The notes under the pieces: model-generated
Databases searched by the model: none
Told to the model about the DNA's origin: nothing
Seen by the model: only the letters and a program-made list of their open reading frames with translations
NCBI RefSeq assembly: GCF_009498275.1
Contig: NZ_CP045643.1
Coordinates: 6,820,001-6,884,000, forward strand
Reading direction: 5' to 3'
DNA from: Streptomyces fagopyri
Lineage (GTDB): Bacteria; Actinomycetota; Actinomycetes; Streptomycetales; Streptomycetaceae
DNA: 64,000 nt
Position numbers and translations under genes: made by a program
In this document: positions 4,959 to 62,219 of the stretch, one piece after another
Layout of the letters: every line of letters begins with the position of its first letter
How positions within the stretch are numbered: position 1 is the stretch's first letter

Positions 4959-5909
4959 ATGAGCGGACCGCTGCTGTGCCGGGAACGGGTCGTGATCGTC
5001 ACCGGCGCGGGGCGCGGACTCGGCAGGGCGCACGCGCTCGCGTACGCCGCCGAGGGCGCGCGGATCGTCGTGAACGACCTCGGGGTCGGGCTGGACGGCT
5101 CGCCGGGTGCGGACGGCCCGGCCGCGCGGGTCGTGGCGGAGATCCGCGCGGCGGGCGGTGAGGCGGTCGCCCACGGGGGCGACGTCGCCACCACCGAGGG
5201 GGCCGCGTCCCTGGTCCGCACCGCCCTGGAGACGTACGGACGCCTCGACACCCTCGTCAACAACGCGGGCTTCCTGCGCGACCGGATGCTGGTCAACCTC
5301 GACGAGGAGGACTGGGACGCCGTCCTGCGCGTCCACCTCAAAGGGCACTTCCTGCCCCTGAAGCACGCGGCGGCGCACTGGCGGGCCGAGGCGAAGGCGG
5401 GGCGGACGCCGCGGGCCCGGGTCGTCAACACGAGCAGCGGCGCGGGCCTGCTGGGTTCGGTCGGGCAGGGCAACTACAGCGCCGCCAAGGCCGGGATCAT
5501 CGGACTGACCCTGGTCGCCGCCGCCGAGCTGGGGCGCTACGGCGTCCAGGTCAACGCGATCGCGCCCGCGGCCCGCACCCGGATGACCGAACGTGCCTTC
5601 GCCCGGGCGATGGCGGCTCCGGACACCGGTGCCTTCGACGCGATGGCGCCCGAGAACGTGTCGCCGCTGGTCGTGTGGCTGGGCGCGGACGCGAGCGCCG
5701 GCGTCACCGGACGCGTCTTCGAGACCGAGGGGGGCCGCATCACCGTCATGGAAGGCTGGCGGCCGGGACCCGGCGCGGACGGCGGGGCCCGCCGGAGCCC
5801 CTCCGAGGCCGGTGACACGGCCCTGCGACTCCTGGCGCGCGCCGAGGCGCCCGGCGCGGTGTACGGAACGGGCGGCGCGGCGGGGGAGGAGCCGGCGACA
5901 GGACGCTGA
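4959..5909 (+). CDS. Short-chain dehydrogenase/reductase of the HIP cluster (Rv3548c-type)
   Basis: A 316-residue SDR with TGAGRGLGRAHALAYAAEGARIVVNDLGVGLDG at the N-terminus; the VNDLG pattern is typical of the hydroxysteroid/17-beta-HSD4-like class. It also has NNAGFLRDRML, an active-site Ser in NTSSGAG and YSAAKAG (YxxxK). It starts one base after the stop of the previous SDR, with an AGGAGG Shine-Dalgarno inside that gene's end, so the two form an operon. The C-terminal about 60 residues beyond the catalytic domain (GWRPGPGADGG onward) are low-complexity. By position it matches Rv3548c; the exact substrate is not known to me. Confidence 0.78.
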   Translation: MSGPLLCRERVVIVTGAGRGLGRAHALAYAAEGARIVVNDLGVGLDGSPGADGPAARVVAEIRAAGGEAVAHGGDVATTEGAASLVRTALETYGRLDTLVNNAGFLRDRMLVNLDEEDWDAVLRVHLKGHFLPLKHAAAHWRAEAKAGRTPRARVVNTSSGAGLLGSVGQGNYSAAKAGIIGLTLVAAAELGRYGVQVNAIAPAARTRMTERAFARAMAAPDTGAFDAMAPENVSPLVVWLGADASAGVTGRVFETEGGRITVMEGWRPGPGADGGARRSPSEAGDTALRLLARAEAPGAVYGTGGAAGEEPATGR

Positions 5910-60899: not shown

Positions 60900-61631
60900 G
60901 TGGCGAAACTCAATCAGATCATCGCAGTGGAGAAGGGCGTCAAGTCCAAGTCCCATCAGGACCTGACGGCAGCCCATCACGGGCTGCAGAAGCCCGCGTT
61001 GCTGGCCGGTATCTCGCGGACCTATCAGCCGAAGGACGAAGAGGGCGAGCAGTTGCCGCCCGAGTCCACCCGGGTGCAGGTGCAGGCGGAGGACGTGCTG
61101 CGGGACACCGCGGGGACGCTCACGCGGCTGTTCGATGTGACCGCCACCAAGGACTGGGCCAACTGCGCGGCCCGCGCGGACGTGAAGGTGGACGGGCGGG
61201 TGCTCGTCGCCGATGTGCCCGTCTCCTACCTGCTGTTCCTCGAGAAGCAGCTCACCGACATCAACACCTTCGTCAGGAAGCTGCCGGTTCTCGACGCCTC
61301 CGAGTCCTGGGTGCAGGACCCCTCCACCGACGCGTGGAAGACCGAGCCCGTCCGCACCCTGCGGACGAAGAAGGTCCCGCGCAACCACGTGAAGGCCGAG
61401 GCCACCGAGAAGCACCCCGCGCAGGTCGAGGTGTACTACGAGGACATTCCCGTCGGCTACTGGACGACCGTGAAGTTCTCCGGCGCCCTGCCCGCCCGGC
61501 GCGTGAACGAACTCCTCGACCGCGTCGAGAAGTTGCAGCAGGCCGTCAAGTTCGCCCGTGAGGAGGCGAACGGCGTGGACGTCGTCGACCAGCGCGTCGG
61601 TGACTCCGTTTTCGGCTACCTGTTCGGGTAG
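60900..61631 (+). CDS. Conserved protein of unknown function preceding the permuted tRNA-like RNAs
   Basis: A 243-residue soluble protein, VAKLNQIIAVEKGVKSKSHQDLTAAHHGLQKPALLAGISRTYQPKDEEGEQLPPESTRVQVQAEDVLRDT. A middle beta-rich section follows (ADVKVDGRVLVADVPVSYLLFLEKQLTDINTFVRKLPVLDASESW), then VRTLRTKKVPRNHVKAEATEKHPAQVEVYYEDIPVGYWTTVKFSGALPARRVNELLDRVEKLQQAVKFAREEANGVDVVDQRVGDSVFGYLFG. No enzyme motif or signal was recognised; it is Lys-rich for this genome, compatible with RNA binding. The GTG start at 60900 has TAACGT (60887-60892) seven bases before it, so the mRNA is probably leaderless. Two structured RNAs follow within 50 bp of its stop. Confidence 0.75.
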   Translation: MAKLNQIIAVEKGVKSKSHQDLTAAHHGLQKPALLAGISRTYQPKDEEGEQLPPESTRVQVQAEDVLRDTAGTLTRLFDVTATKDWANCAARADVKVDGRVLVADVPVSYLLFLEKQLTDINTFVRKLPVLDASESWVQDPSTDAWKTEPVRTLRTKKVPRNHVKAEATEKHPAQVEVYYEDIPVGYWTTVKFSGALPARRVNELLDRVEKLQQAVKFAREEANGVDVVDQRVGDSVFGYLFG

Positions 61632-61642
61632 CCTCATGATCT

Positions 61643-61670
61643 CCCCGGCCACGACGCACCACGGCCGGGG
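61643..61670 (+). terminator. Hairpin after the unknown-function gene
   Basis: CCCCGGCC (61643-61650) pairs exactly with GGCCGGGG (61663-61670), with a 12-base loop. It could terminate the upstream mRNA or serve as a processing boundary before the first tRNA-like RNA, which begins only a few bases later. Confidence 0.6.
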
Positions 61671-61677
61671 CGCGCGA

Positions 61678-61834
61678 GGAGCGCAAGCTGAAACTGAGGC
61701 TTGTCGTGAAAGGCACGGTTCCAGTGGAGGTTCGATCCCTCCCCGCGGCACCCAACGGCACCCCCACAGTGCCCACGCGCCGCGGTAGCCCAATTGGCAG
61801 AGGCAGACCGTGATCAATCTCAGACTCTTGCTCC
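61678..61834 (+). ncRNA. Circularly permuted tRNA-like RNA, unit 1 (YrlA-like architecture)
   Basis: The order is T-arm, acceptor, D-arm. T-stem GGAGG (61726-61730), loop TTCGATC, CCTCC (61738-61742). Acceptor 3' strand CCGCGGC (61743-61749) pairs 7/7 with downstream GCCGCGG (61779-61785); the 29-base cap between them contains a GGCAC/GTGCC hairpin. Then TA, D-arm GCCCAATTGGCAGAGGC (61788-61804) with GG in the loop. At the anticodon-stem position CACGGTT (61714-61720) pairs with GACCGTG (61806-61812), seven pairs, and a 5-base variable loop CCAGT precedes the T-arm. Outside it, CTGAGG-C-TTG (61694-61703, one bulged C) pairs with CAATCTCAG (61815-61823), and GGAG..CAAG (61678-61687) pairs with CTTGCTCC (61827-61834). 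Confidence 0.78.
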
Positions 61835-61869
61835 AGACTCAGCATTCGCCGCCGATCGCCGGATCGACC

Positions 61870-61977
61870 GGGCCCAGGCCCCAGTACGTCGAGATGCTGG
61901 TTCAAGTCCAGCCCGCGCAGCTCGATGCGTGGTGGTCCAAAGGCAGGACGCGGCGACATAACGACTGACCTGGGTCC
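61870..61977 (+). ncRNA. Circularly permuted tRNA-like RNA, unit 2 (YrlA-like architecture)
   Basis: Same permuted order as unit 1. T-stem GCTGG (61896-61900), loop TTCAAGT, CCAGC (61908-61912). Acceptor 3' strand CCGCGCA (61913-61919), 6-base cap GCTCGA, 5' strand TGCGTGG (61926-61932): seven pairs with one G-T. Then TG, D-stem GTCC, loop AAAGGCA, GGAC (61935-61949). The stem leading away from the tRNA-like body is irregular: ACGTCG (61886-61891) with CGACAT (61954-61959), CAGT (61882-61885) with ACTG (61964-61967), then a nine-pair helix of 61870-61878 with 61969-61977. No anticodon loop exists because both RNA ends are there. Confidence 0.75.
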
Positions 61978-62219
61978 TCAAGCGTGCCGGCGTGTGAATT
62001 GGGTGGCATCACAGGGTCCGGGGGCCGGCTACGCCCTCGGACCCGCTTCCCGTTCCCGGATACGCTTCCCGTTCCCGTTCCGCATCCGTTTTCCGTGGGC
62101 GCGAACGGAGTTGCGTTCATAAAGAACGCGGATCTCCCGAAAAGCGTCACCTCGTCGAAACGCCCGCGGCCCTTTCCGTCCGGGCAGGCGAACTACCCTG
62201 GTCCTGAAGAGCCCGGCCG

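What the first reader, a model, noticed from the sequence alone, without database searches (positions are those of the whole stretch)
61671..61980. Two tandem circularly permuted tRNA-like RNAs downstream of an uncharacterised gene
Directly visible: two units in a row, each ordered T-arm - acceptor 3' strand - cap - acceptor 5' strand - D-arm. Acceptor strands pair 7/7 within each unit in the permuted order (CCGCGGC with GCCGCGG; CCGCGCA with TGCGTGG). Both T-arms have perfect five-pair stems and canonical loops; both D-arms carry GG. The alternative, colinear reading (D-arm of unit 1 with T-arm of unit 2) pairs only five of seven acceptor bases. At the anticodon-arm position the RNA opens into a long stem made from its two ends, seven pairs plus two further helices in unit 1 and about nineteen pairs in unit 2. 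Established knowledge: bacterial YrlA-type Y RNAs have a tRNA-like module with capped acceptor stem on an end-to-end stem that binds Ro60 (Rsr). Inference: these are a tandem pair of Y-RNA-like or otherwise new permuted tRNA mimics. No Ro60, RtcB or PNPase gene lies in the window.
Basis: partly seen in the sequence, partly recalled or inferred. Interest (0 to 1): 0.95.

Follow-up and report, generated by a model that had tools for sequence, protein, structure and literature searches.

The report
Twin tRNA-mimic RNA with protein partner
Next to an uncharacterised gene, a Streptomyces genome and many phages carry a conserved RNA shaped like two inside-out transfer RNAs on stalks; gene and RNA are found together, which points to an undescribed RNA-protein machine.

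Summary
Window 61671-62044 encodes a conserved structured RNA just downstream of a DUF7873 gene (60900-61631): two circularly permuted tRNA-like modules, each on a multi-helix end-to-end stalk, then a closing hairpin. Acceptor strands chosen without regard to pairing match 7/7 in 304 of 382 candidates (17.6 when swapped between loci). Whole element: 92.9% of cells paired, 58 of 72 pairs with both-side changes. Of 101 Streptomyces genomes, the 50 with DUF7873 all have module 2 beside the gene (49 at 66-98 bits, one at 62.0); the best hits in the 51 without it reach 63.9 bits and look like rsr-linked Y RNAs and tRNA pairs. The pair recurs beyond Streptomyces, mostly in viral contigs and phages: 88 of 95 loci have a unit within 1 kb. 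In about a quarter of Streptomyces loci a short hairpin-type insert replaces module 1 while the core stays. The plan is Y-RNA-like, but it fails YrlA membership (20.3 bits against 69; kept without full-length Ro60). Best reading: an undescribed DUF7873-RNA ribonucleoprotein presenting tRNA decoys or handles. Expression, binding and function are untested.

The parts
60900..61631 (+). DUF7873 gene (PF25283), 243 aa, constant protein neighbour of the RNA; function unknown
   Evidence: Pfam 404 bits, cut-off 27; AlphaFold mean pLDDT 92.8, pTM 0.66
61643..61670 (+). GC-rich hairpin between the DUF7873 stop codon and the RNA (CCCCGGCC...GGCCGGGG), possible terminator or processing site
   Evidence: sequence; similar hairpins visible in Streptomyces loci printed; not tested statistically
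61679..61833 (+). Unit 1: stalk (outer 61679-61683/61829-61833; inner 61686-61689/61822-61826; AC stem 61714-61719/61807-61812) carrying permuted tRNA-like module 1
   Evidence: R1 85.4 bits at 61704-61829; covariation; coordinates
61726..61742 (+). T-arm of module 1, GGAGG TTCGATC CCTCC
61743..61785 (+). Acceptor 3' strand (61743-61749), cap of 29 nt (61750-61778), acceptor 5' strand (61779-61785)
   Evidence: 7/7 pairs; all 7 pairs show changes on both sides in relatives
61788..61804 (+). D-arm of module 1 (GCC CAATTGGCAGA GGC)
61834..61856 (+). Linker between the two stalks (CAGACTCAGCATTCGCCGCCGAT), largely conserved in Streptomyces
   Evidence: alignment; kept where module 1 is replaced
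61857..61992 (+). Unit 2: stalk (outer 61857-61862/61987-61992; conserved internal loop ATCGACC / CTCAAGCG, CTTAAACG in many relatives; middle 61870-61878/61969-61977; AC stem 61887-61891/61951-61955) carrying permuted tRNA-like module 2
   Evidence: R2 93.9 bits at 61874-61978; outer helix 99.6% of cells paired, 5 of 6 pairs with both-side changes
61896..61912 (+). T-arm of module 2, GCTGG TTCAAGT CCAGC
61913..61932 (+). Acceptor 3' strand (61913-61919), cap of 6 nt (61920-61925), acceptor 5' strand (61926-61932)
   Evidence: 7/7 pairs, one G-T; all 7 pairs covary
61935..61949 (+). D-arm of module 2 (GTCC AAAGGCA GGAC)
62014..62044 (+). Closing hairpin GGGTCCGGGGGC-CGGCTAC-GCCCTCGGACCC with conserved NGGMTAY loop, terminator-like
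   Evidence: such a hairpin follows in 103 of 112 Streptomyces and 39 of 82 other loci; mononucleotide shuffles give 0.4 and 0.8

Best explanation
The segment encodes a structured noncoding RNA that forms, with the DUF7873 protein encoded just upstream, a two-component module found in about half of the Streptomyces genomes sampled and in many phages and viral contigs. SHOWN by comparison: two permuted tRNA-like modules (T-arm, capped acceptor stem, D-arm, anticodon-position stem of about 5 bp), each on an end-to-end stalk; a sequence-conserved core around the stalks; a closing hairpin; gene and RNA occur together. INFERRED: DUF7873 binds the conserved core (internal loops such as ATCGACC/CTTAAACG), because core and protein are the constant parts, while module 1 can be replaced by a short hairpin-type insert or lost. 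INFERRED: the modules are presented outward as tRNA mimics with capped acceptor and no anticodon loop, so that tRNA-body-binding enzymes bind but cannot charge, decode or cut them at an anticodon. Most likely use (about 40% within this reading): decoy or tether that protects the phage's or cell's tRNAs from tRNA-attacking enzymes; next (about 30%): tether of a nuclease or modification enzyme, as YrlA tethers PNPase to Rsr.
For: Structure. Linkage: module 2 beside DUF7873 in 50 of 50 DUF7873+ Streptomyces (49 at 66 bits or more, G088 at 62.0), while no genome of the 51 DUF7873- ones exceeds 63.9 bits; module 1 at >= 80 bits in 37 of 50 against 0 of 51. Wide range. Core constant, module 1 replaced by a 35-70-nt insert in 28 of 112 Streptomyces loci, absent in G011, another insert in G069. 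In 85 non-Streptomyces loci no other protein family recurs in more than 8 loci, apart from an antisense ORF over the same region in 16. 25 of the 60 viral loci given to ARAGORN have three or more tRNA/tmRNA calls within about 4 kb.
Against: No transcript or binding data. DUF7873 is slightly acidic (pI 6.24; median 6.35 over 80 aligned relatives), so RNA binding is not suggested by charge; fold comparison is inconclusive. 26 of the 60 viral loci have no tRNA call nearby. Of 95 non-Streptomyces loci, L153, L154 and L187 show no RNA nearby, L184 only a weak hit with filters off, L198 has it upstream, L202 on the other strand, L223 about 1.8 kb away. In the Rhizobium and Vibrio phages fetched (L219-L222) only one unit was detected, at 28-40 bits. 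No defence-family match for the window protein, so the decoy role rests on context only.
Confidence: 0.6

Rival explanations
1. Cis-acting 3'-UTR element: the tandem tRNA-like fold sits in the DUF7873 mRNA and controls its stability, processing (RNase P-like recognition) or translation, with no separate RNA function.
For: Nearly always directly 3' of the gene on the same strand, with a hairpin in between and a terminator-like hairpin after it.
Against: Elaborate, compensated two-module structure with conserved internal loops is more than a UTR control seems to need (inference); in L198 the RNA lies upstream of the gene and in L202 on the other strand.
Confidence: 0.15
2. Ordinary Y RNA: client of Ro60/Rsr, which binds the stalk, with DUF7873 a chance or secondary neighbour.
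For: Same modular plan as YrlA; the YrlA model aligns end to end with unit 1 at 20.3 bits; 34 of 50 DUF7873+ genomes have TROVE.
Against: Far below the YrlA cut-off; no full-length Rsr in the 16 TROVE-less DUF7873+ genomes, 13 of them with no match at all; TROVE also in 26 of 51 DUF7873- genomes; rsr has its own Y RNAs with different stalk sequences; linkage to DUF7873 is complete in the sample.
Confidence: 0.1
3. Type III toxin-antitoxin-like pair: DUF7873 is a toxin held by the structured RNA.
For: Gene-RNA pair, patchy distribution (50 of 101 Streptomyces), phages and chromosomes.
Against: RNA lies downstream and is not a repeat array; no ribonuclease or toxin family matched.
Confidence: 0.06
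4. Permuted precursor of a working tRNA, matured by splicing at the anticodon loop and cutting at the cap, as in algae and archaea.
For: Same order of parts; tRNA-like geometry (about 1 nt, anticodon-position stem of about 5 bp, 4-5 nt variable loop in the printed examples).
Against: No anticodon loop: the stem runs on into stalk helices that covary; module 1 is replaced by a short insert in 28 of 112 Streptomyces loci; one genome with both modules (G047, one contig, 100% complete) shows no RtcB match.
Confidence: 0.03
5. Decayed or chance remnant of a tandem tRNA array.
For: Two tandem tRNA-Asn genes (L231) do imitate a permuted unit to the models (44.7 and 57.5 bits), which may be how such modules first arose.
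Against: Compensatory changes throughout, colinear pairing 7/7 in only 1 of 102 adjacent pairs, no tRNA called by ARAGORN or Rfam here.
Confidence: 0.01

Closest known systems
YrlA, the tRNA-mimicking bacterial Y RNA (RF02553), partner of Ro60/Rsr
   Same: Permuted order T-arm, capped acceptor stem, D-arm; stalk formed by the two ends replaces the anticodon arm (alignment; PMC8394870 passages); modular; a protein-coding partner next door. In Streptomyces rsr-linked units are also tandem in several loci.
   Different: CM score 20.3 against 69 needed; the P, M and M2 core motifs are absent from all 7 rsr loci checked and Q is present in 1 of 7; partner gene is DUF7873, not rsr; two modules in one continuous element; kept without full-length Rsr.
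Circularly permuted tRNA genes of algae and archaea
   Same: 3' half encoded before the 5' half, with an intervening segment (PMC3978253, search listing and abstract start only; details recalled).
   Different: Those mature into working tRNAs (recalled); here no anticodon loop, and the stalk is conserved.
Two-piece tmRNA (recalled)
   Same: Permuted tRNA-like end with an intervening segment.
   Different: No tmRNA match at the element; a tag frame was not looked for systematically.
GOLLD/ROOL large RNAs
   Same: Ornate bacterial RNAs (PMC12286853, abstract start only); their link with phages and tRNAs is recalled.
   Different: Much larger and, as recalled, without a dedicated protein partner; no Rfam family over its gathering score inside this element.

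Membership tests
YrlA / bacterial Y RNA | Score at or above the Rfam gathering threshold of RF02553 | tested here: not met
   20.3 bits against 69 for unit 1; unit 2 no match
YrlA / bacterial Y RNA | tRNA-like module in permuted order with capped acceptor | tested here: met
YrlA / bacterial Y RNA | Stalk formed by the RNA's own ends | tested here: met
YrlA / bacterial Y RNA | Genomic association with rsr (Ro60) | tested here: not met
   rsr about 103 kb away; 16 of 50 DUF7873+ genomes without TROVE
YrlA / bacterial Y RNA | Binding by Ro60/Rsr; modification by DusA/TruB; tethering of PNPase | not testable with these tools
   needs biochemistry; described for YrlA in PMC8394870 (passages read)
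Permuted tRNA gene | Anticodon stem-loop restored on joining the ends | tested here: not met
   anticodon-position stem continues into covarying stalk helices; module 1 replaceable
tRNA / tmRNA | Called by ARAGORN or Rfam tRNA/tmRNA models | tested here: not met
   for the window; in 16 related loci tRNA, tRNA-Sec and tmRNA matches lie only in the flanks
Type III toxin-antitoxin | Repeat-array antitoxin RNA upstream of a ribonuclease toxin | tested here: not met
   RNA downstream, no repeat array seen; no toxin family
DUF7873 (PF25283), for the protein | Score over the Pfam gathering cut-off | tested here: met
   404 bits against 27

The most novel reading that the evidence does not exclude
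A second, Ro60-independent class of tRNA-mimic ribonucleoprotein: DUF7873 plus a double permuted-tRNA RNA with a constant core and interchangeable modules, carried by phages, often among their tRNA genes, to shield or police tRNAs during conflict with tRNA-cutting defences, and domesticated in Streptomyces.
Probability: 0.45. Interest if true: 0.92.

Novelty: new variant of a known kind. Interest (0 to 1): 0.87.

Why it matters
Bacterial tRNA-mimic Y RNAs have been understood through Ro60 (recalled, and PMC8394870 passages). A second gene-RNA pairing with the same tRNA mimicry but another protein, spread through unrelated phages and about half of the sampled Streptomyces, would show that capped permuted tRNA modules are a reusable part. 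It gives a function to look for in a DUF family with at least 7428 relatives (capped search), and it offers a direct test of whether phages use tRNA mimics against tRNA-targeting immunity, a current question (PMC10264068 and PMC11555353, listing and abstract starts only). The natural module-1 replacements in Streptomyces are a ready-made mutational series.

Tried and rejected
Single-sequence folding gave weak z-scores, so comparative evidence was used. My first locus script located gene ends wrongly in many of the 30 loci where it saw no unit, and the 11 Streptomyces loci with no unit are minus-strand whole-genome loci that I had mis-oriented; both are superseded. Alignments A4, A5 and A6 were selected for 7/7 acceptor pairing, so their acceptor statistics are circular. 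R1 and R2 were built partly from the loci they were then used to count. Samples are parts: 80 of at least 540 relatives kept, 80 of 185, 14 of 73 phage records fetched. Streptomyces loci from the two sources overlap in part (some contig lengths coincide), so locus counts are not independent; genome counts are.

Full report
WHAT IS THERE. The window lies in an 8.88-Mb chromosome (G000, 6820001-6884000) of a Streptomyces (genus inferred from the relatives, up to 98% identical in DUF7873). The gene at 60900-61631 is DUF7873 (PF25283, 404 bits). ARAGORN and Rfam at gathering score see nothing there; with relaxed thresholds the YrlA model aligns along unit 1 at 20.3 bits, against a cut-off of 69. 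In 5000 dinucleotide shuffles of 61632-62050 one gave a single unit and none gave two.

IS IT CONSERVED, AND IS THE PAIRING REAL? I collected 207 DUF7873 loci: 111 Streptomyces loci, 80 IMG/VR contigs, 16 records (14 phages, a Streptomyces plasmid, a Nonomuraea replicon); these are parts of what the searches found (80 of at least 540, 80 of 185, 14 of 73 phage records). With strict rules (T-stem 5/5, acceptor 7/7, D-arm with GG) within 800 nt downstream, two units were found in 66 of 111, 41 of 80 and 8 of 16, one in 34, 31 and 7, none in 11, 8 and 1 (the 11 are loci I had mis-oriented); controls on the same loci gave one unit in 13 of 207 (upstream), 2 of 207 (reverse strand) and 2 of 207 (mononucleotide shuffle), never two. 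To avoid circularity, T-arms and D-arms were then chosen without looking at acceptor pairing: 382 candidates in 202 of 207 loci; 304 pair 7/7, against 17.6 when acceptor 5' strands are exchanged among loci; 35, 71 and 16 distinct 7/7 acceptor pairs occur in Streptomyces, IMG/VR and records; 12 of 207 loci had no candidate with six or more pairs. In 102 unique adjacent pairs, 155 of 204 units pair 7/7 within the unit but only 1 of 102 pairs 7/7 in the colinear sense, so this is not a tRNA with an insert.

COVARIATION. Unit alignments A4 (34 sequences) and A5 (26), which were selected for 7/7 pairing, give T, permuted acceptor and D helices in RNAalifold. In the counts, 99.6% and 99.5% of cells are paired (74.6% and 71.0% in column shuffles; 38-53% with slid partners), and 12 of 15 and 15 of 16 pairs show changes on both sides; 0 of 500 shuffles reach either. 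The anticodon-position stem is longer in native than in swapped combinations: 5.46 against 3.47 bp (46 unit-1 cases) and 5.20 against 3.39 bp (59 unit-2 cases). A whole-element alignment (A6, 43 sequences: 31 Streptomyces, 12 others) recovers two independent end-to-end stalks by itself: the outer helix of unit 1 (94.0% of cells paired, 3 of 5 pairs compensated) and the outer helix of unit 2 (99.6%, 5 of 6 compensated, e.g. CGCCGG/CCGGCG, TGCCAG/CTGGCA, CACCGG/CCGGTG), separated from the middle helix (88.3%, 8 of 8 compensated) by a conserved internal loop. Overall 92.9% of 3061 cells are paired (79.8% shuffled, 37-46% slid) and 58 of 72 pairs have both-side changes. The anticodon-position stems are noisier in this alignment (74-91% for unit 1, 73% for unit 2), and one small helix I had drawn is not supported (40%). 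After unit 2 a hairpin with an NGGMTAY loop follows in 103 of 112 Streptomyces and 39 of 82 other loci, against 0.4 and 0.8 in shuffles.

TOGETHER WITH DUF7873. In 101 Streptomyces genomes DUF7873 is present in 50. The unit-2 model scores at least 66 bits in 49 genomes, all among those 50; the fiftieth, G088, has 62.0 bits at its DUF7873 locus. In the 51 genomes without DUF7873 the best scores are 63.9 bits (G077, about 1.2 kb from its TROVE gene, so an rsr-linked Y RNA) and about 62 (presumed tRNA pairs; in G000 the corresponding place, 57.5 bits, is two tandem tRNA-Asn genes), so G088 alone does not stand above background by score. The unit-1 model scores at least 80 bits in 37 of the 50 and in 0 of the 51 (next best 50.5). 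The 13 exceptions all have unit 2 (62-93.5 bits). Both models were trained partly on Streptomyces copies.

THE MODULES ARE REPLACEABLE, THE CORE IS NOT. Of 112 Streptomyces loci, 73 have the permuted module 1, 28 have a short insert of 35-70 nt with an uninterrupted stem of 5-11 bp in its place, 6 have a T-loop but were not called, and 5 escaped my core pattern; unit 2 was called in all 107 with the core. In L016 a 9-bp hairpin (CGCGGTCCC-GGATCA-GGGACCGCG) stands where the tRNA-like module was, with both flanks of the core kept. In G011 the module is absent altogether and in G069 another insert of roughly 130 nt fills the slot; the slot of G010 and G085 was not read. This is a natural experiment: the stalk tip of unit 1 carries an interchangeable module; the core strands, unit 2 and the gene stay.

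DISTRIBUTION. In the phage collection 73 records have DUF7873 (Vibrio 29, Gordonia 12, Rhizobium 12, Klebsiella 7, Serratia 6, Arthrobacter 3, Pseudanabaena 2, Rhodococcus 1, Microcoleus 1). All six phages examined first, from Arthrobacter phage Mimi to cyanophage Pam2 and a Klebsiella jumbo phage whose DUF7873 is only 29% identical to the window's, carry two units within about 700 nt of the gene (in Gordonia phage Keelan after a tRNA gene). Over 95 non-Streptomyces loci (80 IMG/VR, 14 phages, Nonomuraea), 88 have at least one R1 or R2 hit (E <= 0.001) on the same strand within 1 kb of the stop codon (counted by eye from the listings; models built partly from these loci; tRNA neighbours can give weak false hits). 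Of the other seven: L184 shows a weak hit with filters off; L198 has the RNA upstream; L202 on the opposite strand; L223 about 1.8 kb on; L153, L154 and L187 none (L154 not searched with filters off). In the Rhizobium and Vibrio phages fetched (L219-L222) only one unit was detected, at 28-40 bits. Of 60 of the 80 IMG/VR loci given to ARAGORN, 25 have three or more tRNA/tmRNA calls within about 4 kb, up to 31, and 26 have none; several phage copies sit inside annotated tRNA arrays. Apart from an antisense ORF over the same region (16 loci), no protein family other than DUF7873 recurs in more than 8 of 85 loci. Among 296 genomes drawn from the phylum, DUF7873 was found only in 6, all Streptomyces. 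In Streptomyces the open reading frame that starts at about 62220 is shared downstream by 34 of 73 loci, the two regulator genes upstream of this window by 0 of 74, so the place is partly conserved.

RELATION TO RO60. TROVE occurs in 34 of 50 DUF7873+ and 26 of 51 DUF7873- genomes. A full-length Streptomyces Rsr query, which finds the three positive controls at about 1e-233, finds nothing in 13 of the 16 TROVE-less DUF7873+ genomes and only fragments of 27-65 residues in 3. G047, a one-contig genome with both modules (84.2 and 87.5 bits), has no full-length Rsr and no RtcB match. RtcB is otherwise near universal (99 of 101). The rsr genes of Streptomyces have their own units directly upstream, detected by YrlA at up to 59 bits and by R1 at 24-40 bits in the 12 rsr loci given; their stalks lack the P, M and M2 core motifs in 7 of 7 loci checked. 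So the architecture is Y-RNA-like, but membership in the Ro60 system fails on linkage, presence and model score; binding was not testable.

THE PROTEIN. AlphaFold gives a confident monomer (pLDDT 92.8, pTM 0.66; four long helices and long strands). Fold comparison was inconclusive. pI 6.24; no NCBIfam match, and no PADLOC match for the window protein. N88, P129, T169, A219, A223 and N224 are invariant in an 80-sequence alignment; no active site can be named from this.

HOW IT MOST LIKELY WORKS. Established by comparison: an RNA with two tRNA mimics on stalks, found with DUF7873. Inferred: DUF7873 binds the constant core. Inferred: the mimics, with capped acceptor ends and no anticodon loop, attract enzymes that recognise the tRNA body. 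For YrlA such a module is modified by DusA and TruB and tethers PNPase to Rsr (PMC8394870, passages), and a competitive-inhibitor role against an anticodon nuclease has been suggested for YrlA (PMC7790460, passages). The presence of this module in large phages, often beside their own tRNA genes, makes a decoy or guard role against tRNA-cutting immunity the reading I would test first (about 40%), a tether for a processing enzyme second (about 30%). An evolutionary route is visible: two tandem tRNA-Asn genes in this genome already imitate a permuted unit to the models, so modules could have arisen from tandem tRNA copies.

NOVELTY AND VERDICT. No Rfam family reaches its gathering score inside the element in the window or in 16 diverse loci; no paper of the held library contains DUF7873, PF25283 or 'permuted tRNA-like'. 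The library is incomplete and two central Y-RNA papers are not held. I rate it a new variant of the tRNA-mimic (Y-RNA-like) kind with an undescribed partner: near certain as a conserved structured RNA (about 0.97), with expression, protein binding and function unproven.

Noticed in passing
L229 1000-1500, L124, L128, L130 (upstream of rsr): Streptomyces rsr genes are preceded by what look like three Y-RNA-type units with shared stalk motifs (GGTGCGCAGGC..GGCTACTTC .. GATCTCGGG); by eye the middle one lacks the tRNA-like module, echoing the module loss seen in the DUF7873 RNA.
   Followed up: partly
L231 (G000:C1:6296700-6297250) 202-353: Two tandem tRNA-Asn genes 4 nt apart imitate a permuted unit to the models (44.7 and 57.5 bits): a false positive to watch for and a possible origin of such modules.
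   Followed up: yes
L134 3072-3600, L185 2476-2873, L188 7032-7434, L207 3546-3884: tmRNA genes lie near the DUF7873 pair in several viral genomes.
   Followed up: no
L242 (G069:C1:2970400-2971200) about 138-270: Module-1 slot filled by a different insert of roughly 130 nt; identity unknown.
   Followed up: no
L225 5018-5097: The public record of a Klebsiella jumbo phage annotates 'tRNA-Sup-TTA' across the linker and the start of unit 2 (unit 2 by R2 at 5048-5176), so parts of this RNA may sit in databases as odd tRNAs.
   Followed up: no
leader and linker, e.g. window 61684-61700 and 61817-61840: Six-nucleotide-phased RRYTSA-like repeats recur in the leader, linker and tail strands of the core across loci; part of them pair, the rest is unexplained.
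   Followed up: partly
L202 5961-6229, minus strand; L198 3650-3907: The RNA units lie on the opposite strand (L202) or upstream (L198) of DUF7873, natural cases for testing action in trans.
   Followed up: no
Deinobacterium chartae (control genome): Has both DUF7873 and TROVE; whether it carries the RNA was not checked.
   Followed up: no
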